Positions 1,031 through 39,709 of a DNA stretch of 39,709 nt are shown here, in pieces; positions within the stretch are counted from its first letter, which is position 1, and every line of letters starts with the position of its first letter. Made by a program: the position numbers and the translations under genes. Source of the DNA: a virus; IMG/VR virus record IMGVR_UViG_3300021963_000279, positions 1-39,709 of that record. One strand, written 5' to 3'. The notes under the pieces were generated by a model. The model saw only the letters and a program-made list of their open reading frames with translations. It was not told the origin of the DNA and searched no databases.

Positions 1031-1039
1031 GTTGCTTCC

Positions 1040-1438
1040 TTAAAGTGTAAATTCCCATGTTGAAGGTTTAAAACCCATCTCTTTAGCTTTTCTATCCCAA
1101 CCACGTCTTTGAGATGTAAAAGTAATCTTTGTTTTACTGCCTTGTTTTGCTATTTCTTGAATTTCTTTCCATGCTTGTTGAAGTAAATCTTCATCATTAA
1201 TAGATGACCATGCTGCCCATACATGAAGTGCATTTCCTATAGGCTGTAATACTACAAAACCATAAGGTTGATTATTAGTAATGGCTAGAAATGTCATAGA
1301 TCGTTGTTCGTAACAATCACAATAGACATCTTCTACAATCCATTCAGGACTGCCTTTACTTCTTATAATCTCTAAACCATGCTTTATAAACTGCCAATTA
1401 GCACGTAATTGGTCTTTAGGTATATAATGTAAAATCAT
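1040..1438 (-). CDS. GNAT acetyltransferase-like virion-region protein, allele 1
   Basis: 132 residues. The layout (YGFVVLQPIG strand, WAAWSS, an amphipathic helix, then RRGWDRKAKEMGFKPSTWEF) resembles the C-terminal half of a GNAT fold, as in the small acetyltransferase-like proteins near T7 gp13. No clear acetyl-CoA loop (Q/RxxGxG/A) is visible, so enzymatic activity is doubtful. It overlaps the upstream gene by 4 bases and lies 9 bases before the next. A second allele at 38478-38876 has the same length and differs at about 29 of 132 residues by my count. Probable role is a virion-associated or assembly protein; confidence in function is low. Confidence 0.7.
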   Translation of the reverse strand: MILHYIPKDQLRANWQFIKHGLEIIRSKGSPEWIVEDVYCDCYEQRSMTFLAITNNQPYGFVVLQPIGNALHVWAAWSSINDEDLLQQAWKEIQEIAKQGSKTKITFTSQRRGWDRKAKEMGFKPSTWEFTL

Positions 1439-2244: not shown

Positions 2245-3854
2245 TATCTTGTTCCTTGTTCAGAATAGTCTATATCCATTCCAATAGCAGATGTCCAGTT
2301 AGAGCCTGTAGGTGTTAAACTTACTCTATGATAACGACCTGCACTTCTTACAGAACATCTATCTTCTTCGTCTGTTGTTTTAGTGGCAGAATATGTAATC
2401 TCATCATTTAACATCTTACGACTTGCTATTTGTACAGTAGCAGAACCATTATCTACAGATGGTCTAATAAGATTTACTACAGAGTTATAACCATATTCTA
2501 GATCATTAGTTGTTAATGTTGCTGTTGCATTTACGCCTGTGAATGTAGCAATTTTTGTATTTTTTACACCGCTAAATAAGAACTTACCACCTTTATAAAG
2601 TCTATCATCTAGTGCTGTAGTTAATGTATCTATAGTTTTTAATCCTGCTGCACTTGCTGCCATGTCTATAGCAACACCTGTTCCTGATCCTGCACCTGTA
2701 GCTGTGAATAATACGCCTACTGTATTAGCAACTGCACCAATAAGTGTATAGTCTGTAGTGCCTATACTTCTTATGGTATATGATTTACCTACTGTAAAAG
2801 AGCCTGCTGTTACGTTATAAGCAGAGTCTATTGCATCTAAAGATGTGCCTGAAGTGGCTAATGTAGAAAGATAATTTACATCTGTATCTGCTTCACACCA
2901 TTTTTTAGTTTCATAGTTATAAATAAGTAAGGAGCGACTACCTGATGTATTTCCATAATTCCAAATAATAAGATTACGTTCTGGGTCTACTGCTGCAGAT
3001 ATAGTATCAATATCACCAATGTTAGCATTACTAAAAAAGTATCTATCTACCTTTTCAGCGCCTATACCGGTTAATGTTTGACCATTTGTAGCATAGAAAC
3101 CATCATCAGATAAGAAATATGAAATACCACCATATTGAGCAATAGAGTTTCCTTCTATACATCCAATGTTTCTTGAAATCGTGTCAAATTGGAAGAATAG
3201 TGGTGAGCCAATATATGACATACGTACAATGGCTTTTTCTAAGAATACGATACCAAATTCGCCACCTGTAATACCGGTAATATCACCACCATCAGGAATA
3301 TCTTGATAATCTGATTGTGATGCAGCACCTGCTGTCCAATCAGTAGGATCATTAATATCTGACCATTGAACACGTGATGGATTTGTTCCTGCACCTATAT
3401 TAGCACCTACTACAAAGTCACGAACTACTGTAATGTATTTAGCTACTGGTGCTGATGCTGCTAAATCTGCAAATAATGTAGATGAGCTTACATCATAATA
3501 TTGTATCTTTTCAGAACCATTAGTAGCGAGCGCATAATTACCAAATTGAACAAATTGCCATCTATTTGTGCCTGTATAGCCACCTGATTTAGATACATTA
3601 TCTAATGATAAATCTGTGCCATCTAGTTTAAATAATTTAGTAAGACCGCCTGTAAATATAAAAACATCATTATTAAGTTTAGCTGCAAATGCGTTATTTA
3701 GGTTTTCTGATGCTGCACCTGAATAATCTACAGCAGTTTTAAACGGACCATAACCTACCGCTAAAGGAATAACATTATTAGCTTCTGATACTGCGTCTAG
3801 GATAGATGGTTGATCAGGTAACCAATCTTTAAAAGCTATTCTTTGTGTTTGCAT
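2244..3854 (-). CDS. Tail nozzle protein, P22 gp10/SU10-nozzle-like
   Basis: 536 residues. Repeated beta strands with Trp/Tyr/Asn-rich turns (FTGGLTKLFKLDG, RVQWSDINDPTDW, ISYFLSDDGFYATNGQT, IIWNYGNTSGSRSLLIYNYETKKW) match the propeller-like nozzle / packaged-DNA stabilisation proteins of short-tailed phages. Residues ~350-395 hold an inserted module (GSFTVGKSYTIRSIGTTDY, IGAVANTVGVLFTATG) that also occurs in the fibre gene at 3858-5231. The C-terminal ~140 residues (RMLNDEITYS, RYHRVSLTPTGSNW, GMDIDYSEQGTR) are conserved in the partial second allele at 39190-39709. It follows the fibres by 3 bases, as expected for a tail module. Confidence 0.75.
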   Translation of the reverse strand: MQTQRIAFKDWLPDQPSILDAVSEANNVIPLAVGYGPFKTAVDYSGAASENLNNAFAAKLNNDVFIFTGGLTKLFKLDGTDLSLDNVSKSGGYTGTNRWQFVQFGNYALATNGSEKIQYYDVSSSTLFADLAASAPVAKYITVVRDFVVGANIGAGTNPSRVQWSDINDPTDWTAGAASQSDYQDIPDGGDITGITGGEFGIVFLEKAIVRMSYIGSPLFFQFDTISRNIGCIEGNSIAQYGGISYFLSDDGFYATNGQTLTGIGAEKVDRYFFSNANIGDIDTISAAVDPERNLIIWNYGNTSGSRSLLIYNYETKKWCEADTDVNYLSTLATSGTSLDAIDSAYNVTAGSFTVGKSYTIRSIGTTDYTLIGAVANTVGVLFTATGAGSGTGVAIDMAASAAGLKTIDTLTTALDDRLYKGGKFLFSGVKNTKIATFTGVNATATLTTNDLEYGYNSVVNLIRPSVDNGSATVQIASRKMLNDEITYSATKTTDEEDRCSVRSAGRYHRVSLTPTGSNWTSAIGMDIDYSEQGTR

Positions 3855-12539: not shown

Positions 12540-13493
12540 CTAAGCACCTACGTTTTGTACTTTAGCATGTGCATCTGGGTTTTGAACCACTAATGCATAT
12601 TCTGCTGTGAGTAACCATTTTGTGCTATCGCCAGTTTTAGCAAGTTCTTCTTTGCTCATTGGGCGTAGTGAAGCTAAACCAACATAACCAGGATCAACGC
12701 AGAGAACAGCTTGATCTCTCATGAAACGGTCTAGTTTAACTGTGTGGTTACCGAAGTCAGAAACGTAAACGTCTGCTGCGCCAGTAATTGTTGCTTGTGT
12801 TGTACCTTGAACATTGTTGAACTTAGTAGCAATACCTGCAAAGCCTGAGAAACGAGCTTTGTTAGTTGCTGACATAAGGATTAATGATGGTTCGCCACCA
12901 TCTGTCCAAGCTAATTGTAATGCTGATTTTAGGTCTGCTTCAATAAATGTTACAGAAGTACCATCTGTTGGTGATGCTACTGTGCCATTTGAGAAGCCAG
13001 GTGTTGTACCTGCTGTAGAACCTGTTGCAATTACTCGGTTAGTAATCCAAGATTCAATACCTGCTGTTGATCTAGCTGTTGCTGGACCACCTGCTGAAGA
13101 AGCTTGGTTACGTACGATTGCATATTCCATGTCACGTTTAAGTTCTTTACCAGCTTTCATAAGTTGGTAAGCAACTTCAGACTTACGACCATACTTACGT
13201 ACTACGTCATATGTGTTTGAAATTTGAACTGTCTTGCGTGAGATTTGTGTGTAGTTACCTAATACTGTTGTAGCAGGTAATGTTGCGAATGAAGCGTCAT
13301 CACCTTCAACAGATGTATTAGTACCTGCTGCTGCAAGTGCGTCTGTTTGCCATTGATGGTATGTTTGACCTGCTGTCATACGTTTTGCTAATGAAAGCAA
13401 TGGTGTATCTTCTGGAGAAATATCAAAAATGATATCCTCAAATGATTCCGCTATACCTTTACCGGTGTAGCTATTGGTTGCTGATGCTGCCAT
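12540..13493 (-). CDS. Major capsid protein, SU10-type (HK97 fold)
   Basis: 317 residues, ATG at 13493 with an AAAGGAA Shine-Dalgarno. Pattern: GIAESFEDIIFDISPEDTPL near residue 13, YHQWQTDALAAAG, SRKTVQISNTYDVVRKYGRK, KELKRDMEYAIVRNQ, a variable loop, then TFIEADLKSALQLAWTDGGE, YVSDFGNHTVKLDRFMRD and LTAEYALVVQNPDAHAKVQN. This is the SU10 major capsid protein family (formerly DUF5309). It follows the scaffold gene and is bounded by a terminator downstream. Confidence 0.9.
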   Translation of the reverse strand: MAASATNSYTGKGIAESFEDIIFDISPEDTPLLSLAKRMTAGQTYHQWQTDALAAAGTNTSVEGDDASFATLPATTVLGNYTQISRKTVQISNTYDVVRKYGRKSEVAYQLMKAGKELKRDMEYAIVRNQASSAGGPATARSTAGIESWITNRVIATGSTAGTTPGFSNGTVASPTDGTSVTFIEADLKSALQLAWTDGGEPSLILMSATNKARFSGFAGIATKFNNVQGTTQATITGAADVYVSDFGNHTVKLDRFMRDQAVLCVDPGYVGLASLRPMSKEELAKTGDSTKWLLTAEYALVVQNPDAHAKVQNVGA

Positions 13494-14574: not shown

Positions 14575-14847
14575 TTACCCAAATATCTTAAACTTAGGTC
14601 TGTCCGTTTGGATAGATGCTAACTTACCTGTTTGCATAACGTCAGTAAGTTGTTTGTTAATTTGATTTAATAACTGTAGTGCGATTACTAATCTATTGTG
14701 AGTTTTCTCATCACCTAGTGGACTTGTTGTCATACTAGCTACGATATTCTCACGTACTTTAGCAATAGCTTCTTGATACACAGGGTTATCTAGGATAACT
14801 GCTGCTTGTTCACCACGTTTAATTTCTTCTAATGACTTATCCGCCAT
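14575..14847 (-). CDS. Small helical protein after portal
   Basis: 90 residues, helical (SLEEIKRGEQAAVILDNPVY, AIAKVRENIVASMTTS, RLVIALQLLNQINKQLTDVM) with a basic C-terminus (DRPKFKIFG). It overlaps the portal gene by 11 bases. Small helical proteins of this size between portal and scaffold are common in aquatic podoviruses and are annotated as hypothetical; a head or portal accessory role is inferred from position only. Confidence 0.7.
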   Translation of the reverse strand: MADKSLEEIKRGEQAAVILDNPVYQEAIAKVRENIVASMTTSPLGDEKTHNRLVIALQLLNQINKQLTDVMQTGKLASIQTDRPKFKIFG

Positions 14848-16843
14848 ACATCATCCCTGACTGTGCTTTTATTTGTGCAATAGCTAAGTCAGTTTCTGCT
14901 TTTAATTGTGCTTTAAAGCGTTCCAACTCAGCTTGAGCTGCTATCTTCTCACGTTCTATTATAACATCATTTTGTGATCTGAGTTGCTCTTGTTGTAGTT
15001 GTGCTTGTGCTTTCTCACGTTCAATCTGTAATTGACCTTGAACAGCGATTTCTGCTTCTGAAGGCTTATCTTCTTGCTGACCTTCTTGTTCAGGTGTATT
15101 AGCTGGATTAACCCAGAACTCTTCAGGATTCTTAAAGCCTGCGTTTTGTGTGAGTTTAGCTAACGCATTGTAAATCTTTTCAGGGTTAGTTAAGCCTACT
15201 TGGATAGCTTCTTTTTGCATATTCAAGATAGTAGTTAAGTGTACTAATTGTTGATCTTTATTACCTGCACCTAAGCCTACAGAAATAGATAAGTCTTTAC
15301 GATCTTTCCATTCTCTTGGATCAACTTCTACCCATTTGTTTCTAATACGTACAATATCTGGTTTAGTAAGTGTTGTTCTTACTAATCTGTGAACTAGCTT
15401 AAATAACTCTTTTACGCCTGTTTCAGCAAATGTTCTAGCTACTAACTCTATGCGTTGTTGTGACGCATTCATAATTTGTGCTACACCGGTAGCTGTCTTA
15501 TTAAGACTGTTAGCATCTAAACCTTGATTGTAAGCTGTAACACCTGTTCTCTTCTCTTTCATAGAGTCCATGTATTCAACCATACCGAATGATGATGCTG
15601 GTAATGGTGGATGTGATAAAGGCATAATGCCTGAACCTGGATCACCTTCTACACGAACAATACCACCTGGTCTTGATGTAAGCATATCGTCTAGGTTTAC
15701 ACGATCTGATATAGCATAACGACCATTGTTAGCTAGATACATATTATCTAACTGACCACGAATAAGTGTGGACTTGATAAGCTGAATGTCCATAGTAAGA
15801 TCAGCGTATGATCTACCGATATGTCTATGTGGCATAATCATAGGTGTGATACATGCAAATGGAACATACTCGCATGGTTCTTTGTATAGAACTGTATTAC
15901 CTAATACAACCACTCTATGGCGTTTACCATCTAGTTTAATATATGTGTCTTTAACTAATGCTTCTTCTGATTCAATAGCTCTATCATATTCTTCGTCATA
16001 AATATCACGTGCATTAGATTCTTCTTCAAACGTATCACGTAAGTCTGACATGATAGACTTGATGTATTCTAGTGGCTTGTCAAATGTTTCTGCAATATCT
16101 GACAACTGCATAACTTCTCTATGTTGAACGAATCTAGCGTCTTGTAGATTAGGACCAGATACTTCTACAGATACCATCATGTTTTCAGGTGCTACGTTTT
16201 CAATGTTAATCTCTGTCTTTTTCTCTGTGACTTTGAGTTTAACGTCATGTAACATAGGTTGCATAACTGACATTGGGTCTACACCATTCATTGCTGCTTG
16301 TTGGTATAGTGCATCCATGTTGACAGATGGATCAGGATATGCTGTGTGTTCTAATACTTCTGTGTTCTCATCTGAAGCCAACATTTGTAGTTGTGCATCT
16401 GTAAGACCTTTATACTCGTATTCTTCTACTTCTTCCTCTTCTTCAGCATAGACTTTTACATAGCCATTCTTAGAGAGTAATGCGTCTTTAAACCATACGT
16501 AGAATGTCTTAAAGCCTTCATTCTTTTCCATAACGATATGGTTAATGTAATCTGTTTCTTGTTCTGCTGCTTCTTGATCTTCAGGACCTTTAGGATCAAA
16601 CTGAACAACCTTATCACCAGCTACGAATACTTTAAGTAATTGTGGTAATGCAGCTTCAATCGTATCTTGTACGTCATAGCTAACTACTTGTGAACGACCT
16701 TCTTCTTCGTTACCGAAAGGTTGACCTAAGTAGTAGTCAATTGCAGCAGCTCTGTCGTTAGATAATGCAGAGTCATTGACACCATACGCAATGTTCTCTT
16801 CAGCTTCTACACGAGCTATGATTTCCATGTCTTGTAACTTCAT
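14837..16843 (-). CDS. Portal protein, P22-type
   Basis: 668 residues. Recognisable portal features: an N-terminal RAAAIDYYLGQPFGNEEEGR, VSYDVQDTIEAALPQLLKVF, a core with YVPFACITPMIMPHRHIGRS, DIQLIKSTLIRGQLDNMYLA, VTAYNQGLDANSLNKTATGV, and a long C-terminal Gln/Glu/Lys coiled coil (~residues 590-655) like the P22 barrel. It forms the dodecameric DNA entry vertex. It shares a 1-base overlap (TAATG) with the terminase large subunit, so the two are coupled. Confidence 0.92.
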   Translation of the reverse strand: MKLQDMEIIARVEAEENIAYGVNDSALSNDRAAAIDYYLGQPFGNEEEGRSQVVSYDVQDTIEAALPQLLKVFVAGDKVVQFDPKGPEDQEAAEQETDYINHIVMEKNEGFKTFYVWFKDALLSKNGYVKVYAEEEEEVEEYEYKGLTDAQLQMLASDENTEVLEHTAYPDPSVNMDALYQQAAMNGVDPMSVMQPMLHDVKLKVTEKKTEINIENVAPENMMVSVEVSGPNLQDARFVQHREVMQLSDIAETFDKPLEYIKSIMSDLRDTFEEESNARDIYDEEYDRAIESEEALVKDTYIKLDGKRHRVVVLGNTVLYKEPCEYVPFACITPMIMPHRHIGRSYADLTMDIQLIKSTLIRGQLDNMYLANNGRYAISDRVNLDDMLTSRPGGIVRVEGDPGSGIMPLSHPPLPASSFGMVEYMDSMKEKRTGVTAYNQGLDANSLNKTATGVAQIMNASQQRIELVARTFAETGVKELFKLVHRLVRTTLTKPDIVRIRNKWVEVDPREWKDRKDLSISVGLGAGNKDQQLVHLTTILNMQKEAIQVGLTNPEKIYNALAKLTQNAGFKNPEEFWVNPANTPEQEGQQEDKPSEAEIAVQGQLQIEREKAQAQLQQEQLRSQNDVIIEREKIAAQAELERFKAQLKAETDLAIAQIKAQSGMMYGG

Positions 16844-18093
16844 TAAACAATTCCTCTATTTGTGTATTGTATCTTCTCTCTAGACCATGATTCATTCTTC
16901 ATAGCTTCTATAGAAGTACATAAATATCTGAAAGCATCTGCTCCATGAGAAAACTCATCATGCAATGGTGCGCCAGGTTCGTTAGTTGCAGAGTTTATAC
17001 TTCTGCGATAATTCTTTAAACATTCCACAAGTCTATTAGCTGACTTATCAAAGTATATTCTGTGGAAGTTCATTCTTGCTAGTTTAATACCAGACTCTAT
17101 ATCTTGTTTAGGAACGATACGAATATCCCATCCTAGTTTACGCATAATATCTTCTGCTGATATACCATGCTTAAAGTCTTTAGACTGTCCGTCATGTGGT
17201 AAGAACATTGTACCCCAATTGTATGGTAAGTTCTTGAGTTGTGCAGAATAACTATCTAAAGTCCTGTGGTCATCTTCTATGTAACCAATAACACGTAAGT
17301 CTGATACACCTTTTTGGCATAGGATAATAGCACACGCATCATTCCATCCAAGGTCAAACACTACATGAACCTTTAACATTGGGTCATAAGGAACAGTAGT
17401 AATACGGTTATTCTCTTGTGCTTCACGTATCTCGTTAGCATAGATAGCACCATCTACAGCAGCTTTACATTCACCCTCCCAGATGTTTGCATAGTCAGGG
17501 TTAGTCTTTTGACTGTGTTGACGTTCTATCTCTAATACTTCAGGAAACCATGGGTTGTCTGTATAGTTTACCTTTACGACTTTAGCGTTCTCTGGTGGCT
17601 CTACTACAAACCTTTGGTATGTATCGTCTGTATCTATGTTAGGGTTAAATGATACCCATATCTCTGAATTAGGTTTACGTATTGTAGGTATTAAAATATC
17701 CCACGACTTCTTTGATACTGTTTGTGCTTCTTCCACCCAGACAATATCACATCCTTCAAAAGACTTAATGGACTCCACAGTATTAGTAGCCAACCCAGTA
17801 AAACTGAACGTGCTACCGTTAAGACCACGTATTTCTGCTTCCAATACTTCATAGAAAGCTCCTAGACCTAATGCTTGTATTTGGTCATTAAGTAATGTAT
17901 GTACTGACTGCTTGATAGACTTTTGTATTTCACGTGCGCATAAGACACGTGTTGGCTCATTAGCTGCTTTTATAAGCAATGCTCTAGCAAATGACCATGA
18001 CTTACCACTTCCACGACCACCATAAGCTACCTTGTATCTATGTGGCTGGAAAAGAAAATCTAACTTCTCAGGAAAGGTTGCATTAACCTTCAT
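16843..18093 (-). CDS. terL: Terminase large subunit (Terminase_3 / PBSX type)
   Basis: 416 residues. Walker A GGRGSGKS at 25-32, Walker B IVWVEE at ~117-122, and a C-terminal RNase H-like nuclease with VFDLGWNDACA near 235-245 and HDEFSHGADAFRY near 385, supplying the Asp residues for metal binding. The protein drives ATP-dependent DNA packaging into the procapsid through the portal and cuts the concatemer. Members of this family are often headful packagers, which fits a circularly permuted map. It overlaps the terminase small subunit by 11 bases. Confidence 0.93.
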   Translation of the reverse strand: MKVNATFPEKLDFLFQPHRYKVAYGGRGSGKSWSFARALLIKAANEPTRVLCAREIQKSIKQSVHTLLNDQIQALGLGAFYEVLEAEIRGLNGSTFSFTGLATNTVESIKSFEGCDIVWVEEAQTVSKKSWDILIPTIRKPNSEIWVSFNPNIDTDDTYQRFVVEPPENAKVVKVNYTDNPWFPEVLEIERQHSQKTNPDYANIWEGECKAAVDGAIYANEIREAQENNRITTVPYDPMLKVHVVFDLGWNDACAIILCQKGVSDLRVIGYIEDDHRTLDSYSAQLKNLPYNWGTMFLPHDGQSKDFKHGISAEDIMRKLGWDIRIVPKQDIESGIKLARMNFHRIYFDKSANRLVECLKNYRRSINSATNEPGAPLHDEFSHGADAFRYLCTSIEAMKNESWSREKIQYTNRGIV

Positions 18094-22559: not shown

Positions 22560-22752
22560 CAAACTGCTCACTATTAGGTTTAGATGTGCCTTCCCATAAT
22601 CTTTCTAATTCACCTGTAGACTTGTTAAGTTCATATTCAGCTAGGTGTGGTGAAGTATCAGCATCTTTCTTTTTCTTGCCGAATATTTTATCCCAGTTAT
22701 CTTCAAACGTAGGTCTATCTGTAAAAGGTCTAGGAGAGCTGCCCTTGCCCAT
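22549..22752 (-). CDS. Small conserved phage protein (GKGSSPRPF type)
   Basis: 67 residues. The N-terminus MGKGSSPRPF and middle DNWDKIFGKKKKDADTS recur in many phages as a short hypothetical near DNA modification genes. It is polar, with no membrane segment or catalytic motif. It overlaps the methyltransferase by 23 bases and the nuclease-like gene by 11. Function unknown. Confidence 0.7.
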   Translation of the reverse strand: MGKGSSPRPFTDRPTFEDNWDKIFGKKKKDADTSPHLAEYELNKSTGELERLWEGTSKPNSEQFDGE

Positions 22753-23662
22753 GATTTATCCTTTCTTGTTGTAGTTTCTCATACTCTTTGTTTAGTTCAC
22801 AACCTAAATATTGTCTACCATGTTGCAATGCTACTTGTGCAGTTGTTCCACTTCCCATAAATGGGTCAAATACAATATCATTTTTGCGACTACCAGCTAA
22901 TACACATGGTTCAATCAGAGCTGTAGGATATGTAGCAAAGTGCGCTCCTTTGTAAGGTCTAACATTTACTGACCATACATCACGTTTGTTTCTTTTTTCA
23001 TAAACTTTATCAATTTTACTAAAATTATGTTGCACATATTTAGCCTCTTGTTCGGAAGCATTTTCTCTATGTTGTTTTTTATTTCTTTTAGCTATTTGTT
23101 CTTTTGCTGAATTAATACATGGTTCTTTTATGGCTTCATTGTCAAAGTAATACTTATCTGATTTAGATAATAAGAAAATATACTCATGTGACTTTGTGCA
23201 TCTATCTGTTACAGACTCTGGCATTGGATTAGGTTTATGCCAAATAATATCTTGTCTTAAATACCAACCAGCTTCACGTAATGCAAAAGCTAACATCCAT
23301 GGTATTCCAATTAGGTCTTTTGGTTTTATGTTTTGTATTACAGGTGGTCTAGTAACACCATATTCAGTATTACCTCTTAATGATTGATTGGTTGTTGATG
23401 TTCTGCCACCGCTAGAATAACTATCGCCAATATTTACCCATAATGTTCCATCATCAGCTAATAATTCTTTTACATGATTAAATACATCTACCATGTTTTC
23501 TATGTATTCTTTAGGTGTTTGTTCAAGACCAATTTGACCATCAACTCCATAATCTCTTAATCCGTAATAAGGTGGTGAAGTAATACAAGTTTGAACTTTA
23601 ACGCCTTCATCTATCCAGCGTTTCATTATCTCTCTACAATCTCCAAATTCTATTTTGTTCAT
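22730..23662 (-). CDS. Site-specific DNA methyltransferase (beta class, N4/N6)
   Basis: 310 residues. Motif IV TSPPYYGLRDYG near residue 28 precedes motif I DPFMGSGTTAQVALQHGRQY near 280, the order of beta-class amino-methyltransferases (TSPPY often N4-cytosine or N6-adenine). A target-recognition region lies between (~150-250), with a charged insertion of ~40 residues. It should protect phage DNA from host restriction. No cognate endonuclease is adjacent, so it is an orphan enzyme. Confidence 0.9.
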   Translation of the reverse strand: MNKIEFGDCREIMKRWIDEGVKVQTCITSPPYYGLRDYGVDGQIGLEQTPKEYIENMVDVFNHVKELLADDGTLWVNIGDSYSSGGRTSTTNQSLRGNTEYGVTRPPVIQNIKPKDLIGIPWMLAFALREAGWYLRQDIIWHKPNPMPESVTDRCTKSHEYIFLLSKSDKYYFDNEAIKEPCINSAKEQIAKRNKKQHRENASEQEAKYVQHNFSKIDKVYEKRNKRDVWSVNVRPYKGAHFATYPTALIEPCVLAGSRKNDIVFDPFMGSGTTAQVALQHGRQYLGCELNKEYEKLQQERINHGQGQLS

Positions 23663-27255: not shown

Positions 27256-27404
27256 AGCATATAGCAGATATACTTAAACGATTGAATGATGAAATTAAAT
27301 TAGATAACGATAAATGGGAGAGAGCAAATGAGTCAACAACAACACTACGATCAAGTAATGATGCAACAACATCAACAAGAGGAGAGAGCAAAGATGAACT
27401 ATAA
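27240..27404 (+). CDS. 54-residue charged protein
   Basis: ATG at 27240 preceded by GGGGG at suitable spacing. MANGLEHIADILKRLNDEIK is an amphipathic helix, followed by KWERANESTTTLRSSNDATT of low complexity. The last ~25 codons overlap the start of the Sak3 gene in another frame (27328-27404). The first half is convincing; the tail may be only a consequence of the overlap. Confidence 0.55.
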   Translation: MANGLEHIADILKRLNDEIKLDNDKWERANESTTTLRSSNDATTSTRGESKDEL

Positions 27405-27795
27405 CGAACTACGTAAAATCAATGTATCTGACCACATTGAGAAAAAGAACGGTCTATCATACTTATCATGGGCTTGGGCTGTGGATACTCTTCTACAGCA
27501 AGACCCAACTGCAACATGGACTTATGGCGAACCTAAACAGTTTGGTGAAACACTCATGGTATTTTGCACAGTCCATGCGTTTGGTAAGTCTATGACATCA
27601 CAATTACCTGTGCTTAACTTTAGAAACCAAGCTATTCCTAACCCTGACGCTATGGCAGTTAATACAGCTATGCAAAGATGTTTAGCTAAAGCTATTGCAT
27701 TACATGGTATTGGTTTGTATATCTATAGTGGTGAGGATATTCCAGAGTCAGAACAACCAACTCTAAAAGCTGTATCTAGCAAGGACTTTCTATGA
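27328..27795 (+). CDS. Single-strand annealing protein, Sak3/DUF1071 family
   Basis: 155 residues from ATG 27328 (GGGAGAGAG upstream); a second ATG at 27394, also with an AGGAGAG site, gives the usual family start MNYNELRKINVSDHIEKKNG. Core motifs: LSYLSWAWAVDTLLQQDPTA, LMVFCTVHAFGKS, DAMAVNTAMQRCLAKAIALH-GIGLYIYSGED. This is the DUF1071 (Sak3-like) recombinase family, which anneals ssDNA. It overlaps the exonuclease gene by 4 bases, forming a Red-like pair. The Gln-rich N-terminal 22 residues are probably an optional extension. Confidence 0.9.
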   Translation: MSQQQHYDQVMMQQHQQEERAKMNYNELRKINVSDHIEKKNGLSYLSWAWAVDTLLQQDPTATWTYGEPKQFGETLMVFCTVHAFGKSMTSQLPVLNFRNQAIPNPDAMAVNTAMQRCLAKAIALHGIGLYIYSGEDIPESEQPTLKAVSSKDFL

Positions 27796-28415
27796 TAGAG
27801 CAACGCACAGATGAGTGGTTTCAACAAAGACTAGGCAAGGTGACAGCATCCAGAATATCGGATGTTATCGCCAAGACTAAAACAGGTGTATCTACATCAC
27901 GTCAAAACTATCTTGTTCAATTAGTATCAGAACGTCTTACAGGAAAGAAAGGCGATAGCTTTGTAAACCAGGCTATGTTAGATGGGATTGAAAGAGAAAG
28001 TGCTGCTAGAGAGCTTTATATGCAATCTAAAGGGGTATCTGTAACAGAAGTAGGTTTCTTTGACCATCCTGTTATTAAGAATAGTGGCGCTAGTCCTGAC
28101 GGTGCAGTAAATGCAGAAGAAGAAGGTAAGTATGCAGGTCTTATAGAGATTAAGTGTCCTATAGAAACAACCCATACTAATACGCTTATGAGTAAATCAG
28201 TTCCTAGTAAATACATACCACAGATGCAATGGCAGTTAGCTTGTACCGGTGCTAAGTGGGTAGATTTTATTAGCTATAATCCTAATTTCCCTGTAGAATT
28301 ACAGCTCTTTGTTTCTAGGGTTGACAGGGATAATGATTATATTGCAGAACTAGAAGCTGAAGTGGTTAAGTTCCTAGACGAAGTAGACCAAACAATTTTA
28401 AAACTAAAGGAGTAA
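27792..28415 (+). CDS. Lambda-type exonuclease (YqaJ family)
   Basis: 207 residues. RTDEWFQQRLGKVTASRISD is the N-terminal YqaJ signature, with GIERESAARELYMQSKGVSV, the catalytic SGASPDGAV (D) and GLIEIKCPIET (ExK), then PSKYIPQMQWQLACTGAKWV, matching lambda Exo/YqaJ. Degrades one strand of dsDNA to give ssDNA for Sak3. ATGA overlap with Sak3 upstream and 3 bases before the SSB-like gene indicates one recombination cassette. Confidence 0.93.
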   Translation: MIEQRTDEWFQQRLGKVTASRISDVIAKTKTGVSTSRQNYLVQLVSERLTGKKGDSFVNQAMLDGIERESAARELYMQSKGVSVTEVGFFDHPVIKNSGASPDGAVNAEEEGKYAGLIEIKCPIETTHTNTLMSKSVPSKYIPQMQWQLACTGAKWVDFISYNPNFPVELQLFVSRVDRDNDYIAELEAEVVKFLDEVDQTILKLKE

Positions 28416-28418
28416 TAT

Positions 28419-28664
28419 ATGGCTGAATACGATAACACAAACACATTTGCATTATTTAAGAATGATAAAGGTGACAACCCTAAACGACCTGACTACACAG
28501 GTAATCTTAATGTAGATGGTATTGAGTTTAGAGTAAGTGGATGGGTTAGAGAAGGTGCTAAGGGTAAGTTTATTAGCGGTACTGTACAACTAAAAGATAA
28601 CAATTTTGCTGGTGCTACTAGGGGTGCTGCTGTAGAAGGTGCAGATGAGGATGTTCCTTTCTAG
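28419..28664 (+). CDS. SSB-like small protein with acidic C-terminal tail
   Basis: 81 residues, starting NTNTFALFKNDKGDNPKRPD after MAEYD, then YTGNLNVDGIEFRVSGWVRE and FISGTVQLKDN, a small beta-barrel-like family widespread in phages. The C-terminus GADEDVPF closely resembles the acidic DDDIPF tail by which SSB recruits partners. Position directly after annealase and exonuclease supports a ssDNA-binding role. The stop codon is inside the hairpin at 28649-28672. Confidence 0.7.
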   Translation: MAEYDNTNTFALFKNDKGDNPKRPDYTGNLNVDGIEFRVSGWVREGAKGKFISGTVQLKDNNFAGATRGAAVEGADEDVPF

Positions 28665-28687: not shown

Positions 28688-28759
28688 TTACTTGTTCATT
28701 ACGTACATTGTGACTTCAAAGCCAAAACGCATTTCAGTAGCTGCTGGTGTTGTCCACAT
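28688..28759 (-). CDS. pqqA: PqqA-like coenzyme PQQ precursor peptide (23 residues)
   Basis: ATG at 28759 (cat 28757-28759), TAA 28688-28690; AAGGAG lies 7 bases upstream, an ideal site. The peptide opens MWTTPAAT and ends RFGFEVTMYVMNK. Glu15 and Tyr19 in the E-V-T-x-Y motif sit exactly where the Glu/Tyr pair joined by PqqE is found in Klebsiella PqqA, which is also 23 residues; I count 11 of 23 identities with that peptide from memory, including M1, W2, P5, A6, R11 and G13. PQQ is the cofactor of periplasmic methanol/glucose dehydrogenases; host PqqB-F would mature the peptide. No pqqB-F genes are in the window. It is on the minus strand inside a plus-strand operon with its own -10 box, so it is a separately controlled cargo gene. 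Confidence 0.88.
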   Translation of the reverse strand: MWTTPAATEMRFGFEVTMYVMNK

Positions 28760-28766
28760 AGCGGTT

Positions 28767-28824
28767 CTCCTTTCTTTTAGATTTATAATAGAATTATACG
28801 CCTGTATGGTTTTGTTAGACACAA
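28767..28824 (-). promoter_or_regulatory. Promoter and ribosome-binding site of pqqA
   Basis: Minus strand: perfect -10 TATAAT (28798-28793), AT-rich start region, and AAGGAG (28772-28767) 7 bases before the ATG. The best -35-like hexamer (TTGTGT, 28824-28819) is 20 bases away, too far for a standard spacer, so an activator or an AT-rich upstream element may be used. A TTGT-N5-ACAA inverted repeat (28812-28824) overlaps it. Confidence 0.55.
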
Positions 28825-28845: not shown

Positions 28846-29226
28846 ATGGATATACACCATTTAGAACTAGATATATCGTGTTATGCTACTGCTGTTTACC
28901 ACGAAGTTAATACAAGAACATTGGAGGAAAAAATTGGAGTCATTAATACTATCCGTAATAGGGTTCGTGATGGTCGTTGGGGTCGTGATGTATGCTCTGT
29001 TGTTTATGCTAATAATCAGTTTGCTGTGCAAGATCAGTCCCACAGTCCAGTTAATGAAAGGGCGTATTTGGAGACTAAACTTTTGGTTATTGATACGATT
29101 ATTCACAATAAATATGCAAACCCAGTTGCAAATGCTTTATACTTCCATGATGATTCAATACCGCCTAAAAAGGCATGGTTTGGTCAAAGGAAGAAAACAC
29201 ACATAGGAAGGATGGTATTTTACTAA
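28846..29226 (+). CDS. SleB-like cell-wall hydrolase (lysin)
   Basis: 126 residues; GAAAGGA upstream of ATG 28846. ISCYATAVYHEVNTRTLEEK (catalytic Glu region YHE), VINTIRNRVRDGRWGRDVCS-VVY, NNQFAVQDQSHSPVNE and ANALYFHDDSIPPKKAWFGQ follow the Hydrolase_2/SleB-type lytic transglycosylase pattern (YHEA..E....NRV...C.VVY...QFS). No signal peptide. It lies in the plus-strand early operon, apart from the holin cassette on the other strand. It probably cuts peptidoglycan. Confidence 0.8.
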   Translation: MDIHHLELDISCYATAVYHEVNTRTLEEKIGVINTIRNRVRDGRWGRDVCSVVYANNQFAVQDQSHSPVNERAYLETKLLVIDTIIHNKYANPVANALYFHDDSIPPKKAWFGQRKKTHIGRMVFY

Positions 29227-33882: not shown

Positions 33883-35304
33883 TTACTCTTGATTAGTTTG
33901 CGTTAGTGACAATAATCCTGCTTGTTGTGGCAACGTTATTTGTTGTGTTGTTGGTGTTAAAATACCTGATTTTTTTGCGCCACTTACTTTATATAGCGTT
34001 TTAGCTAATAAAGTTTTAAAAGCTAGACTTCTAGTTGCTAAGAAACCAGCAGTTCTAGGAAGATTCTCAGCTAACCAACCCATAGCTACTGGGTCTTTAT
34101 TTAAATCCATAAATGCACGTCTTTCAACAACATCTAATGTATCTAAAAGTTTAGACTCTGTTTTATTAAGTTTTACAATATCTGGAACTTCACTTGCCAC
34201 TTTTTCTTTTAATCCACGTGCTAATGATTTCTGAGCTTCTACTTCAGTTGTTCCCATTTGACCATATTTTTTTTGTAATGCAGAATATGTTCCTTGTTTA
34301 ATTTCTTGAGCTGTTTGAACAGGAATAGTTTGCTTAGGACCACCTAATGGTGTTCTATTAGTTGTCATAAATTCATTAGCAACTTGGTCAATAGCTGCTA
34401 AATCAGCAGTAGGATTAACTTGGTTAGACTTTTTGGCACGTAATTCATCTAGGTAATTTAATACATCAGTTTTATTTACAGTACCTGTAGATGATTTTAC
34501 TTTATTAGCTATTTGTTCATTAATGTTAGCAATTTTATTTTTCATTATTTCTACTGAATCTCTAGAAATATCTAATCCATTTTCTAAAAGAGTTCTTGCT
34601 GCAACATCTGCTTTACCTGTTTTTAATTGTTTATAAGTAGGTTTTAAAGCACTTTGCATTAAATCATAAGACTTTTGTTCTAATTTAGGTCTAATAGATG
34701 GTAATGATTCCCCTACTTTAGATATACCTGTTTTTGCTTGTTCTAAAATTTGTGGAGTTTGCATTGTTGGCATACCTGCTACAGGTCTTAATCTTGATAA
34801 TGCTGATACTTCTGATAAACCAGGCAATGCTTCTATACCTGATTGTTGAATAACATTTGCTACTTTAGGTAAATATTCTTGACCAGATACAGTTCTAGGT
34901 TGGTACATAAAGCGTTGACCTTCTCTAGCAACTGATTGCTCAAAAGGTAAATTAGTGCCACCAAATCTTTCAGGTAATAATGCTTTAGTAGCACCATATA
35001 AACTACCATAAGCACCTGTAGCTAATGATGCCGGAACTTCTAATGCACCTGTAATTTTATTAAAGATACCAGCTTCAGATTTACGTTTTGCTAATTGACC
35101 ACGTTCTGTTGTTTGTTTTTCTCTTAATGCTAGTGCTTCTTGTGGTGGCAAAAATTCAGGAATACCACGTACATCAGTTAGTCCTGTTGCTACAGGATTT
35201 TGTATTCCTTTAATCTCATTAGCAAATAGTTGAGCAGCTTCAGTATCACCAGCATTATGAGCTTTAACTAATGCGTCTTTTAATTGCGTTAATCTATCTG
35301 CCAT
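33883..35304 (-). CDS. Internal virion protein (large helical)
   Basis: 473 residues, ATG 35304, rich in helix, Lys, Ala, Thr and Leu (LTQLKDALVKAHNAGDTEAA, QKSYDLMQSALKPTYKQLKT, NEQIANKVKSSTGTVNKTDV), with a Pro/Gly linker and C-terminal helices (AGFLATRSLAFKTLLAKTLYK). Follows the 452-residue gene by a 1-base overlap. Such long helical proteins at this place in podoviruses are injected or internal virion proteins. No catalytic motif recognised. Confidence 0.65.
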   Translation of the reverse strand: MADRLTQLKDALVKAHNAGDTEAAQLFANEIKGIQNPVATGLTDVRGIPEFLPPQEALALREKQTTERGQLAKRKSEAGIFNKITGALEVPASLATGAYGSLYGATKALLPERFGGTNLPFEQSVAREGQRFMYQPRTVSGQEYLPKVANVIQQSGIEALPGLSEVSALSRLRPVAGMPTMQTPQILEQAKTGISKVGESLPSIRPKLEQKSYDLMQSALKPTYKQLKTGKADVAARTLLENGLDISRDSVEIMKNKIANINEQIANKVKSSTGTVNKTDVLNYLDELRAKKSNQVNPTADLAAIDQVANEFMTTNRTPLGGPKQTIPVQTAQEIKQGTYSALQKKYGQMGTTEVEAQKSLARGLKEKVASEVPDIVKLNKTESKLLDTLDVVERRAFMDLNKDPVAMGWLAENLPRTAGFLATRSLAFKTLLAKTLYKVSGAKKSGILTPTTQQITLPQQAGLLSLTQTNQE

Positions 35305-36662
35305 TATTCAACTCCATATGCTTTTAAAATATCTTCTTTATTTCTTACTTGTGATGATGGTGTTTTTTCTTTGTAACCCATAATAACTTTAGAAGGATCA
35401 AGTTTATTTGTTTTAGCAATTTCTGCATATTGTATATCATATTTATTTTTAACTTCTTCAGCAGCTTGATATAGTTTATTTGCTACATTTAAAAAATCTT
35501 GTCTTTGTGTTGGATTTAATTTTTGACCAGTAGCAAGCATATTAAAGTAATTTTGTGCTCTATCTACTACACCAGTAGCTTCCATTGCTAATCTTAACTC
35601 TGTATCACGAACAACAGAAGTAGGATCAAGTAATTTCATAAATGTAGTAGCACCTGCTAAATCACCTGCTGGTGAAGCACTACTTAAAGATTTATTAATA
35701 ATATTATAAGCAGAACGAACTTCACCAAAGTTTTTAACTTCAGGAGTATCTTGATATTGTTTGCGTAAGTCTTGCTCTTGTTTAAATATATCTTGTTTTG
35801 TTTGAGCTTGTTTTTTAACAATAGGTGTTTGAGTTTGTTGTGCAACAGGCTGTGTAACTTGACCAGGTTTTGTAGTAATTTGTGGTTTAGTCATATCAAC
35901 TGGTTGTGTTGTAACATTTTCTTCATTATATATTGGAGGCAATATATTAGGTGGTAATGCAGATGGTTGAATTTTAACAGGTACTGTATATACATTACCA
36001 TTTTCATCCATTGTTTCTTGCATAATAGTTTTAGGAGAGGTTTGATTTCTGTAAGCAAGTGCATATTGAGATGTTTTTCTTAATGCTTCGCCTTCAGGAG
36101 TGTTTTGAGAACCTCTAGCTAAGATACTAAGTGATGATCCTTCTACTCCTGCGCCAAATCCAGCTAAACTACCAGATTCTTTAGCAATAGCTTGGTCAAG
36201 TATTTTAATCTGATTTTGAGCATTATTATATCCAGTATCAGTATCTTTAACTGTAGCAAGAGTTTCACGTCTTCTCATGAGTTTTTCTAATGGAGTTAAA
36301 CCTTCCATTTCAAGTCTTTTAGCACCTTGTTCCAATTCCATTTGCTTTACTCTACCTAGTAGTGCTTGGTCATATACATTTTGTGATGAACCCATGCCAC
36401 CTACATACGCTTTAGCTAGATATGGAATTGCACTACCTACATTTAAGTTTTTAGGTTGTGCAAAATAATTAGCAGCAGTTCCTATGATACCTTGAACAAT
36501 AGCTTGATTTTGTAATGTTTTTTGTTGTTCTGGAGTAAGAATACCTGTAAGAGCTTCAGATGGTCTAGCACCAAAAACATTCATGCCTGAAAACAAATTA
36601 CCAAGTCCAGATGTAACTGGATTAGTAAGTGCTGAAATTGGGTTGTTATCAAATAATGCCAT
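35304..36662 (-). CDS. Internal virion protein (Gln/Lys-rich)
   Basis: 452 residues from ATG 36662. N-terminal glycine-rich hydrophobic patch (NPISALTNPVTSGLGNLFSG), then helices (LEKLMRRRETLATVKDTDTG), a low-complexity region with QTQTPIVKKQAQTKQDIFKQ at ~275-300, then a helical C-terminus (LAMEATGVVDRAQNYFNMLA, LYQAAEEVKNKYDIQYAEIA). Likely virion-internal; function by position only. Expressed after the 229-residue gene (3-base gap). Confidence 0.65.
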   Translation of the reverse strand: MALFDNNPISALTNPVTSGLGNLFSGMNVFGARPSEALTGILTPEQQKTLQNQAIVQGIIGTAANYFAQPKNLNVGSAIPYLAKAYVGGMGSSQNVYDQALLGRVKQMELEQGAKRLEMEGLTPLEKLMRRRETLATVKDTDTGYNNAQNQIKILDQAIAKESGSLAGFGAGVEGSSLSILARGSQNTPEGEALRKTSQYALAYRNQTSPKTIMQETMDENGNVYTVPVKIQPSALPPNILPPIYNEENVTTQPVDMTKPQITTKPGQVTQPVAQQTQTPIVKKQAQTKQDIFKQEQDLRKQYQDTPEVKNFGEVRSAYNIINKSLSSASPAGDLAGATTFMKLLDPTSVVRDTELRLAMEATGVVDRAQNYFNMLATGQKLNPTQRQDFLNVANKLYQAAEEVKNKYDIQYAEIAKTNKLDPSKVIMGYKEKTPSSQVRNKEDILKAYGVE

Positions 36663-37355: not shown

Positions 37356-38467
37356 TATTTGCCTACCTTTCCTACTACATAGCAGATTGGTTCTAAAATA
37401 GCACGATAAATCATGCCATAAACATCACGTTTTTTACCTCTTTTTTGTTTCCATATATCAGCAGTCCTATGTCTTGCGATATGCTCTAAAACACCCCTTA
37501 AAATGCGTTGTAGGGCATTCTTTTCACCTGCTTTGTAAGCATAGTTTACTAATGGTAAGAATAGAGTGTGATAACCTTTTTCGTATGCTGGGTCTAAGTC
37601 TTTAGACTGAGCTAACCAAATAGCGTTACGGAAACTACCAAAACCATATTCAGCATTCATAGCTGTACATACTATCTTGCCACCACCACTAGATGTTGTT
37701 TCTGATTTAGTAGTTAATGGTTGACCAGCTACTGTAGAAGTAAATTGTGCAAGTCTTTGGTATGGTAAGTTTTGTTGGAAGTTAAAGCGGTCTAGTTCAG
37801 CTTGTAGAGCTTGTTGAGCATAGTTTTCACGAGCTTGACCAGTTTGTAATAGTTGATTAATAGGTTGATAAGCTGCTTGAGCCATTGTAGGTGCATTTCT
37901 AGCTGCTTGTTCTTGTAAGCCACGTTCTGAAGCATAGTTTTGATATGCTGCTTGACCAGCTTGGTTAGCTAAAGCGTTAGCTAAGTTTTGTTGTGATAGA
38001 CCTTCTAATTGTGTTTGTGCGCCTGAACCATAACGACCTGCTCCTGCTGCTTGGCTACGAGTGCCACTAATAGCTTGGTTATATGCTTGTGTAGCTGCTT
38101 CTTGTCCTGGCTTTAATGCTGCTTGTAGATAAGGGTTAGCACCTAAATATTGACCACCTACTGCACCTTGTTGTTGAGCTAATGCTTGGTTAATAAGTGG
38201 GCTACCTGCTCTTGCTTGAGCTTCTGCCATAGTAAGTGCTGACTCTGTTTGTGCAGATGGACTTACGTATGTTTGACCACCATAGTATTGTGGTGTATAT
38301 GTTTCATATAGTTTTTGAGCTTCTGATAAACCTTTTTCAACATAAGGTCTCATAGATGGGTCAATACCAGAAGTAGTCGTTTGTTGACCACCACCACCGC
38401 CACCACCATAAAATGTAAATGACTCCACTAAACCTGTAAGCCAATTAGATAAATTCAGTAATTTCAT
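37355..38467 (-). CDS. Tail/internal virion protein, allele 2 (complete)
   Basis: 370 residues, ATG 38467. N-terminal MKLLNLSNWLTGLVESFTFY followed by seven Gly, TTTSGIDPSMRPYVEKGLSE, a helical Ala/Gln middle (QAQARAG, LAQQQGAVGGQYLG, NLANALANQAGQAAYQNY), KIVCTAMNAEYGFGSFRN, and a basic C-terminus (RHRTADIWKQKRGKKRDVYG). The C-terminal ~42 residues (C-terminal to base 37480) plus the next ~42 (37480-37606) are shared with the other allele's genome. Position and composition suggest an internal or tail-hub protein. Confidence 0.75.
   Translation of the reverse strand: MKLLNLSNWLTGLVESFTFYGGGGGGGQQTTTSGIDPSMRPYVEKGLSEAQKLYETYTPQYYGGQTYVSPSAQTESALTMAEAQARAGSPLINQALAQQQGAVGGQYLGANPYLQAALKPGQEAATQAYNQAISGTRSQAAGAGRYGSGAQTQLEGLSQQNLANALANQAGQAAYQNYASERGLQEQAARNAPTMAQAAYQPINQLLQTGQARENYAQQALQAELDRFNFQQNLPYQRLAQFTSTVAGQPLTTKSETTSSGGGKIVCTAMNAEYGFGSFRNAIWLAQSKDLDPAYEKGYHTLFLPLVNYAYKAGEKNALQRILRGVLEHIARHRTADIWKQKRGKKRDVYGMIYRAILEPICYVVGKVGK
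37480..37606. repeat. Second copy of the 127-bp exact repeat (junction)
   Basis: Identical to 1-127; the fork point between the two alleles. To the right (37607-39709) lies allele 2; the homologous stretch 128-2763 is allele 1. The length difference (533 bases) equals 42 from the N-terminus of the tail/internal protein, 492 from the jelly-roll insertion, minus 1 spacer base. Confidence 0.85.
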
Positions 38468-38477
38468 ATTTCTTTCC

Positions 38478-38876
38478 TTAAAGTGTATATTCCCATGTTG
38501 AAGGTTTCAAACCCATTTTGATAGCTTTTTTATCCCAACCACGTCTATGAGATGTAAAAGTTACTTTTGTTTTATTGCCTTGTTTTGCTATTTGTAATAC
38601 TTCTTGCCATGCTTCTTGAAGTAGTAATTCATCATTAAGTGATGACCATGCTGCCCATATGTGAATTGTATTTCCCATAGGTTGTAATACTACAAAGCCA
38701 TAAGGTTTGTTATCTGTTATTGCTAGAAATACCATAGAACGTTGTTCGTAACAGTCACAATAGACATCCTCTGCTAACCACTCAGGATGACCTTTGCTTC
38801 TGACTATTTCAAGACCATGCTTAATAAACTCCCAATGAGTCCTAAGTTGGTCTTTAGGTATGTAGTGTAAAATCAT
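38478..38876 (-). CDS. GNAT-like virion-region protein, allele 2
   Basis: 132 residues, same length as the allele at 1040-1438, differing at about 29 of 132 positions by my count. Conserved runs include MILHYIPKDQLR, YCDCYEQRSM, YGFVVLQP, WAAWSS and KPSTWE, and the changes are mostly conservative. The Cys-containing YCDCYEQ is kept in both. It overlaps the 105-residue gene by 4 bases. Confidence 0.75.
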   Translation of the reverse strand: MILHYIPKDQLRTHWEFIKHGLEIVRSKGHPEWLAEDVYCDCYEQRSMVFLAITDNKPYGFVVLQPMGNTIHIWAAWSSLNDELLLQEAWQEVLQIAKQGNKTKVTFTSHRRGWDKKAIKMGLKPSTWEYTL

Positions 38877-39190
38877 CCTACTATTATATAACGATAATTC
38901 CTTGCGACTGCATGACTTCCATGATTAACTGTGCAACTTCCTTGTGCAAAATTAGTAAAGTAAACGTCTTTAAGTTCTGCTGCCGAATTAGCGTCTTTAG
39001 GCATAAATAAGATGACTGAGTTAAAACCTATACGTTCATTACTAAGCGTTGTTGTAGTCGCACTTGTTGTGGTAGAAAAGTCACCAGTATTGTTGCTTTT
39101 ACCTTCTACAAGGTTATTTACAATTTCTGCTACACTTCTAGGGTCACCACCTGTCCAAGGTAGTTTACGGTACATATCACTACGTGCCAT
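38873..39190 (-). CDS. Short allele of the jelly-roll surface protein (105 residues)
   Basis: The N-terminal ~40 residues (MARSDMYRKLPWTGGDPRSV, AEIVNNLVEGKSNNTG) and C-terminal YRYIIVG match the 269-residue allele at 1435-2244. The middle is only ~30 residues (LKDVYFTNFAQGSCTV) and lacks the jelly-roll domain. Thus it keeps the virion-attachment part. Likely a fibre/tail decoration with variable receptor domain. Confidence 0.75.
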   Translation of the reverse strand: MARSDMYRKLPWTGGDPRSVAEIVNNLVEGKSNNTGDFSTTTSATTTTLSNERIGFNSVILFMPKDANSAAELKDVYFTNFAQGSCTVNHGSHAVARNYRYIIVG

Positions 39191-39709
39191 TATCTAGTTC
39201 CTTGTTCAGAGTAATCTATATCCATTCCAATAGCAGAGAACCAGTTAGCACCGGTAGGTGTAAGACTGACTCTATGATAACGACCTGCACTTCTTACAGA
39301 ACATCTATCTTCTTGACTTGCTGTTACAGATGAACCGTATGTAATAGTATCGTCTAACATACGTCTAGAAGCCACAGAAACGCTTGCAGAGCCATTATCT
39401 ACAGAAGGTCTAATAAGAGTAAGCACAGAGTTATAACCGTATTCTAGGTCGTTTGTAATGATATTTGCTGTAGCTGGAGTTCCTGTAAATGTGATAATTT
39501 TAGTATCACGAACACCACCGAATAGGAATTTACCACCCGCATATAGTCTATCATCTAATGTCGTTACAAGTGTGTCTACAGTCTTTAATGCTGCTGCACT
39601 TGCTGCCATATCAATAGCAACACCTGTGCCTGAACCTACACCTGTAGCTGTAAATAATACACCAACAGTATTAGCAACTGCACCAATACTTGTAAATGAT
39701 GTTGTGCCT
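39190..39709 (-). CDS. Tail nozzle protein, allele 2 (5' end outside window)
   Basis: The frame is open to the right edge. Visible C-terminal ~170 residues start with the module TTSFTSIGAVANTVGVLFTA and continue MAASAAALKTVDTLVTTLDD, GGKFLFGGVRDTKIITFTGT, RMLDDTITYGSSVTASQEDR, RYHRVSLTPTGANWFSAIGM, ending DYSEQGTR, homologous to the nozzle at 2244-3854. A 1-base overlap with the next gene. N-terminus missing. Confidence 0.8.
   Translation of the reverse strand, partial: GTTSFTSIGAVANTVGVLFTATGVGSGTGVAIDMAASAAALKTVDTLVTTLDDRLYAGGKFLFGGVRDTKIITFTGTPATANIITNDLEYGYNSVLTLIRPSVDNGSASVSVASRRMLDDTITYGSSVTASQEDRCSVRSAGRYHRVSLTPTGANWFSAIGMDIDYSEQGTR

What the first reader, a model, noticed from the sequence alone, without database searches (positions are those of the whole stretch)
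28688..28824. Phage-borne pqqA: a PQQ precursor peptide with its own promoter
A 23-residue minus-strand gene with ATG, TAA and an ideal AAGGAG site carries the PqqA hallmark E-V-T-x-Y with Glu15/Tyr19 in the same register as Klebsiella PqqA, plus the RFGFEVTMY core typical of betaproteobacterial PqqA. It is too short for standard gene callers and sits opposite to its neighbours, as a cargo gene with its own TATAAT box. Established knowledge: PqqE/PqqD join the Glu and Tyr side chains and PqqA is consumed one-for-one per PQQ. Inference: the phage supplies extra substrate so the methylotrophic host keeps methanol dehydrogenase active during infection, i.e. an auxiliary metabolic gene. I cannot tell whether it has been reported for such phages.
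Basis: partly seen in the sequence, partly recalled or inferred. Interest (0 to 1): 0.92.

Follow-up and report, generated by a model that had tools for sequence, protein, structure and literature searches.

The report
Phage gene for a PQQ precursor peptide
Viruses of methanol-eating bacteria, including nearly all those studied here, carry a tiny, usually unannotated gene for the 23-residue peptide from which the host builds the methanol-oxidation cofactor PQQ, probably to keep the infected cell's energy supply running.

Summary
Window 28688-28759 (-) encodes MWTTPAATEMRFGFEVTMYVMNK, a PqqA well over the curated cut-offs (TIGR02107 38.8 bits vs 20; PF08042 40.3 vs 21.1) and letter-identical to PqqA of Methylotenera/Methylophilus hosts. 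It is not a one-off. All nine Methylophilales phage genomes hit in the phage collection carry it, in unrelated families and usually unannotated. Across 50,697 phage records, three different PqqA queries hit only these, one related spring virus and two mis-filed Acinetobacter contigs. In an unbiased test, 134 of 136 loci chosen only by the neighbouring genes have pqqA there, on the opposite strand; one lacks it cleanly. Glu15 and Tyr19 never vary, and selection on the peptide is strong (pN/pS 0.18). No record searched encodes PqqE: phages carry only the consumed substrate. Hosts carry 1-12 pqqA copies, and a single pqqE in the ten genomes checked. Best reading: an auxiliary metabolic gene topping up PQQ precursor for methanol dehydrogenase. 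TATAAT is conserved in close relatives, but no -35 was found. Virus-borne pqqA was reported in 2020 (Lake Baikal), so the kind is known; its near-universality in methylophages appears unreported in papers I could search.

The parts
28688..28759 (-). pqqA: 23-residue PQQ precursor peptide MWTTPAATEMRFGFEVTMYVMNK (stop TAA at 28688-28690)
   Evidence: TIGR02107 38.8 bits (cut-off 20), PF08042 40.3 bits (cut-off 21.1); identical to host peptides in L132, L145, L183, L202
28767..28772 (-). Shine-Dalgarno AAGGAG, 7 nt before ATG
   Evidence: sequence; AGGA-type sites before nearly all viral pqqA listed
28793..28798 (-). TATAAT, candidate -10 element, 39 nt before ATG
   Evidence: sequence; at -39 in 44 of 95 distinct upstream regions of flank-selected relatives, exact TATAAT somewhere upstream in 83 of 95; no qualifying -35
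28419..28664 (+). single-stranded DNA-binding protein, neighbour used as an unbiased anchor
   Evidence: phrog_18154 E 5.8e-16
28846..29226 (+). endolysin-like protein, neighbour used as an unbiased anchor
   Evidence: phrog_938 E 8.2e-12
27792..28415 (+). YqaJ/RecE-type phage exonuclease in the adjacent operon
   Evidence: phrog_149 E 9.3e-45
27328..27795 (+). Sak-like ssDNA annealing protein in the adjacent operon
   Evidence: phrog_8492 E 3.8e-43
16843..18093 (-). large terminase, shows that the contig is a tailed phage
   Evidence: phrog_3717 E 1.2e-67
14837..16843 (-). portal protein
   Evidence: phrog_1216 E 7.6e-147
12540..13493 (-). major head protein
   Evidence: phrog_1328 E 1e-97

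Best explanation
The gene makes a genuine PqqA peptide and is an auxiliary metabolic gene of phages that infect obligate methylotrophs. During infection the phage peptide enters the host pathway: PqqD and PqqE join the Glu15 and Tyr19 side chains, and host PqqF/G, PqqB and PqqC finish PQQ, which keeps PQQ-dependent methanol dehydrogenases (MxaF/XoxF) active. It sits as a small separate unit (upstream TATAAT, ribosome site, 23 codons) inserted antisense between early genes. Shown here: the gene, its identity to host peptides, its distribution, selection on the peptide, the empty site, absence of pqqE in the phages and presence of pqqE in hosts. From the literature: the Glu-Tyr chemistry and that extra pqqA can raise PQQ. 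Inferred: expression in infection and benefit to the phage.
For: Profile hits. All nine Methylophilales phage records hit carry it, in lineages described as distinct (PMC10580990; taxonomy lines), at different genomic sites. Queries with Acinetobacter and Klebsiella PqqA find no further phages among 50,697 records. 120 IMG/VR loci, all with ATG and a stop shortly after Tyr19. Flank-anchored test: 134 of 136 positive, opposite strand. In 70 distinct sequences W2, P5, E9, R11, G13, E15, T17, Y19 and N22 never vary; pN/pS 0.177 against 0.263 for the endolysin and 0.479 for SSB. Third codon positions vary most. No PqqE in 54 phage records. All 120 host-family genomes have pqqA, mean 4.6 copies, range 1-12; exactly one pqqE in 10 of 10. 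PMC4109929 reports the same host pattern. PMC7936290 cites a rise in PQQ from single-gene overexpression in Gluconobacter, pqqA among the strongest. PMC10906245 gives the Glu-Tyr cross-link.
Against: No transcript, peptide or PQQ measurement exists for any infected cell. No consensus -35 was found, and upstream regions differ between phage groups. Hosts already carry several pqqA copies, so one more must matter through dose or timing. One close relative (L378) lives without it. Pattern-selected loci are circular for W, P, R, G, E, V, T and Y; only the flank-anchored set avoids this. pN/pS values are uncorrected and sequences are related.
Confidence: 0.8

Rival explanations
1. The phage PqqA acts as a decoy or competitor: it occupies PqqD/PqqE so that PQQ synthesis is slowed or shifted rather than raised.
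For: It would bind the same partners; phages often encode small inhibitors of host proteins (general knowledge).
Against: A decoy would be expected to lose the reacting residues, yet Glu15 and Tyr19 are invariant in 70 distinct flank-selected sequences, and the window peptide equals a host peptide letter for letter. One contig pairs pqqA with a PQQ alcohol dehydrogenase gene, which points to more, not less, PQQ use.
Confidence: 0.06
2. The extra PQQ serves another end, such as redox protection, or blocking a PQQ-bound outer-membrane receptor against superinfection, as PQQ blocks a PqqU-dependent E. coli phage.
For: PMC12124388 reports that PQQ closes PqqU and blocks phage IsaakIselin.
Against: The gene occurs in phages of unrelated families that need not share a receptor; no PqqU link was tested in Methylophilaceae.
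Confidence: 0.06
3. Recently captured or contaminating host DNA without function.
For: Peptide identical to the host's; hosts have many dispersed copies.
Against: Conserved position and strand in 134 of 136 relatives, low pN/pS, several unrelated phage families, phage peptides of OM43 phages differing from host ones, and no homologues of 27 window phage proteins around 118 host-genome pqqA loci.
Confidence: 0.02
4. The conserved stretch is really an antisense gene or a regulatory RNA, and the PqqA reading is a by-product.
For: Two records opened annotate an antisense hypothetical ORF over pqqA (ctXG6705 and Melnitz).
Against: Variation is concentrated at third positions of the PqqA frame (mean entropies 0.31, 0.23, 0.91); two antisense frames hold stops in 48 and 108 of 122 sequences. 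The third antisense frame is open in 108 of 122, which may simply follow from the peptide sequence.
Confidence: 0.02

Closest known systems
Bacterial PqqA (TIGR02107 / PF08042), e.g. host Methylotenera and Methylophilus PqqA
   Same: Length, every conserved residue, Glu15-x3-Tyr19; the window peptide is letter-identical to host copies
   Different: Encoded alone in a phage, antisense between early genes, with no pqqE found in the phage records searched
pqqA in Lake Baikal viral population VP_266 (Coutinho et al. 2020, PMC7678222)
   Same: Virus-borne pqqA in a predicted Methylophilaceae phage with the same proposed role
   Different: That was one T4-like metagenomic virus that also carries methanol dehydrogenase; here pqqA is alone, in a ~37-40 kb phage, and is found in many families, including cultured phages where it was missed
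Virus-encoded pqqA/pqqD/pqqE in reservoir sediment contigs (PMC13188868)
   Same: Virus-encoded PQQ genes reported
   Different: Discussed there as phosphate-solubilising genes; listed collectively, without sequence analysis in the passages that I read
psbA (D1) of cyanophages (own knowledge)
   Same: Phage replaces the fast-consumed component of the host's energy-gaining machinery during infection
   Different: D1 is a large photosystem subunit; PqqA is a 23-residue peptide substrate of a cofactor pathway

Membership tests
PqqA (TIGR02107 / PF08042) | Score over the curated cut-off | tested here: met
   38.8 vs 20 bits and 40.3 vs 21.1 bits
PqqA (TIGR02107 / PF08042) | Glu and Tyr spaced E-x3-Y near the C-terminus | tested here: met
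   Glu15/Tyr19; invariant in 70 distinct flank-selected sequences
PqqA (TIGR02107 / PF08042) | Short single-peptide gene with start, ribosome site and stop | tested here: met
   23 codons, ATG, AAGGAG, TAA
PqqA (TIGR02107 / PF08042) | Is cross-linked by PqqE with PqqD | not testable with these tools
   Needs biochemistry; known for bacterial PqqA (PMC10906245)
Auxiliary metabolic gene | Lies in a true phage genome | tested here: met
   Terminase, portal, major head protein, helicase, exonuclease, SSB, endolysin in the window; same gene in cultured phages
Auxiliary metabolic gene | Homologue of a host metabolic gene whose pathway the host completes | tested here: met
   PqqE in 10 of 10 host-family genomes; PqqC-like ORF in the same locus as PqqE in L249; pqqB/D/F not tested by model. 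Host assignment of this window rests on peptide identity and relatedness to methylophages
Auxiliary metabolic gene | Maintained by selection in the phage | tested here: met
   134 of 136 syntenic loci, pN/pS 0.177
Auxiliary metabolic gene | Expressed in infection and benefits the phage | not testable with these tools
   No expression or infection data available here
Moron-like cargo unit (own promoter and terminator, separable) | Cleanly separable from flanking genes | tested here: met
   L378 has the SSB and endolysin genes 17 nt apart with no pqqA in its 34,955-base record
Moron-like cargo unit (own promoter and terminator, separable) | Own promoter and terminator | tested here: inconclusive
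   Conserved TATAAT at -39 in close relatives but no -35 and no terminator by scan

The most novel reading that the evidence does not exclude
pqqA is a near-obligatory gene of phages that infect obligate methylotrophs, gained separately in unrelated phage families. The phages take over cofactor synthesis with the smallest possible cargo, the single stoichiometrically consumed peptide, and this 23-residue tag marks methylotroph phages in metagenomes although gene callers miss it.
Probability: 0.6. Interest if true: 0.72.

Novelty: new member of a known kind. Interest (0 to 1): 0.6.

Why it matters
It shows that a metabolic gene carried by every methylophage genome detected here has been largely overlooked because it is 23 codons long, and it corrects a published statement about phage P19250A. 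Cultured phage-host pairs (Venkman or Melnitz on OM43 H5P1, P19250A on its Methylophilaceae host) make the idea directly testable.

Tried and rejected
Conservation among pattern-selected loci was rejected as evidence because the pattern fixes those residues; loci chosen by neighbouring genes were used instead. 'Acinetobacter phage MD-2021a' hits were rejected as phage pqqA because the contig opened carries bacterial pqqB, C, D and a radical SAM gene with ppk. A phage origin of the many host copies was looked for: no homologues of 27 window proteins lie around 118 host-genome pqqA loci, a limited test. Phages of other hosts were tested with Acinetobacter and Klebsiella PqqA queries: none found. 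A tree of phage and host pqqA was not built: 69 bases hold too little signal. Named methylophages HIM624-A and MEP431-434, and Venkman EXVC038S, were not among the hits and I could not establish whether the collection holds them.

Full report
WHAT IS THERE. The minus strand of the window carries ATG...TAA at 28759-28688, 23 codons: MWTTPAATEMRFGFEVTMYVMNK. AAGGAG stands 7 nt before the ATG and an exact TATAAT 39 nt before it. hmmscan gives one family in each library: TIGR02107 (E 5.6e-10, 38.8 bits, cut-off 20) and PF08042 (E 3e-10, 40.3 bits, cut-off 21.1). A degenerate PqqA DNA pattern matches the window once and in none of 100 shuffles. The contig is a tailed phage: terminase, portal, major head protein, DnaB-like helicase, Sak annealing protein, exonuclease, SSB and endolysin are recognised by PHROGs.

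WHERE ELSE IT OCCURS. In 50,697 phage records, tblastn with the peptide at E up to 10 hits 12 records: P19250A (100% identical peptide), Venkman, MEP301, MEP401, MEP402, four Melnitz isolates, a spring-water podovirus (MW202481), and two 'Acinetobacter phage' contigs. Of the last two, the one I opened is bacterial: it carries pqqB, pqqC, pqqD and a radical SAM gene beside it. Queries with the Acinetobacter and Klebsiella peptides return the same 12 records, so phages of other PQQ-making hosts in that collection show no PqqA. In the methylophage records opened, pqqA is unannotated, or overlaid by an antisense hypothetical ORF. Their families differ (Zobellviridae, Kyanoviridae, unclassified), OM43 phages are described as distinct groups (PMC10580990), and the genomic context differs: antisense between early genes in the window group, first of a co-directional run in MEP401/402, near tRNA genes in Melnitz. 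None of the four cultured-methylophage papers I searched mentions pqqA; the only pyrroloquinoline mention is as a medium supplement.

METAGENOMIC VIRUSES. A minority have other peptide types; several of their contigs carry portal or head genes (L033, L036, L087, L112), so the gene may reach phages of other PQQ-making hosts.

UNBIASED TEST. The pattern fixes several residues, so I also collected loci by the neighbouring SSB and endolysin proteins alone. Of 136 loci with at least 900 nt on the right side, 134 carry a PqqA scored with a model built from bacterial peptides only, on the strand opposite to the anchor gene. Some contigs occur in both sets, so these are not 136 independent phages. Among 70 distinct sequences W2, P5, E9, R11, G13, E15, T17, Y19 and N22 are invariant; pN/pS is 0.177, against 0.263 (endolysin) and 0.479 (SSB, only 7 sequences). 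Even the most divergent forms (GMEITAY in L284 and L307) keep Glu and Tyr. Mean column entropies by codon position are 0.31, 0.23, 0.91, as expected for selection on this reading frame. L378 has SSB and endolysin genes 17 nt apart and no pqqA in its 34,955-base record: an empty site that shows the gene is a separable unit.

PROMOTER. A sigma-70 scan found no promoter and no terminator. Yet of 95 distinct upstream regions, 44 have TATAAT at exactly -39 and 83 have TATAAT somewhere within 130 nt; the window-like consensus is aaGcGTATAATtcta. A dedicated transcription start is therefore likely in the close group but not proven, and other groups have different upstream DNA.

HOST SIDE. The window peptide is identical to PqqA of Methylotenera and related genomes. 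All 120 sampled genomes of that host family have pqqA, mean 4.6, median 4, range 1-12 copies; ten of ten have exactly one pqqE. PMC4109929 had noted multiple pqqA but single other pqq genes in Methylophilaceae. PqqE was not found at family score in any of 54 phage records; one weak radical-SAM match is far below cut-off. One 72-kb viral contig (L051/G134) encodes a PQQ alcohol dehydrogenase besides pqqA.

MECHANISM. From the literature: PqqE, with PqqD, links Glu and Tyr of PqqA, then protease, PqqB and PqqC complete PQQ (PMC10906245). PMC7936290 cites that overexpressing single pqq genes in Gluconobacter raises PQQ, pqqA among the strongest. Inference: PqqA is the consumed part, the enzymes persist, and methanol dehydrogenase is central to these hosts' energy supply; a phage that must keep an obligate methylotroph running gains most from supplying the peptide. 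That only pqqA is carried, that hosts multiply only pqqA, and that phages of unrelated families carry it all fit. Not shown: expression, cross-linking of this peptide, or benefit.

NOVELTY. Virus-borne pqqA was reported in one Lake Baikal population beside methanol dehydrogenase (PMC7678222) and is listed for reservoir viruses (PMC13188868). The Baikal paper says P19250A encodes none of its putative auxiliary genes; for pqqA this is not so. I found no paper in the held library reporting pqqA across methylophages; subscription papers, including the P19250A description, are not held. Hence: a new member of a known kind, with a distribution that looks new and strengthens the case greatly.

Noticed in passing
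window 1-2742 and 37480-39688: The two ends of the contig repeat each other at 80-91% identity in the same order, as if a circularly permuted genome of about 37.5 kb had been closed with a strain variant, or the tail-region module is duplicated.
   Followed up: partly
window 23120-23328 (-), inside ORF 22730-23662: A stretch of the DNA methyltransferase gene is 81-86% identical in DNA to dam genes of Prochlorococcus and Synechococcus phages, suggesting exchange between cyanophages and methylophages.
   Followed up: no
L051 (record G134, 34049-35731): A 72-kb viral contig carries both pqqA and a PQQ-dependent alcohol dehydrogenase (608 bits over the joined frame), like the Baikal virus VP_266.
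   Followed up: partly
phages KX815270 (P19250A), MT375522, MW452941, OP830906, OP830907; MW202481 and MZ577095-MZ577098: pqqA is unannotated in the first five and lies under a 'hypothetical protein' in the others (antisense in the two opened, MW202481 and MZ577097); the public annotation could be corrected.
   Followed up: yes
CAKLQF020000010.1, CAKLQH020000055.1: Records filed as 'Acinetobacter phage MD-2021a'; the first is a bacterial contig with ppk and pqqB, C, D and a radical SAM gene, the second holds the same pqqA but was not opened.
   Followed up: partly
upstream of pqqA in L286, L298, L301, L308, L314, L315, L319 (about -40 to -15) and L265, L268, L404: Instead of TATAAT at -39 these have inverted-repeat-like stretches such as TAGACAAACAATTTTGTATGTCAT just before the ribosome site, possibly an operator.
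   Followed up: no
L012, L021, L026, L032, L036 (LGFEVTMYF types) and L033, L087, L089, L112: Viral contigs with PqqA peptides unlike Methylophilaceae ones; some resemble Rhodocyclaceae or gammaproteobacterial PqqA, so phages of other PQQ-making hosts may carry the gene too.
   Followed up: partly
L378 (empty site): The closest pqqA-less relative keeps the flanking SSB and endolysin genes 17 nt apart; its host is unknown and worth identifying.
   Followed up: partly
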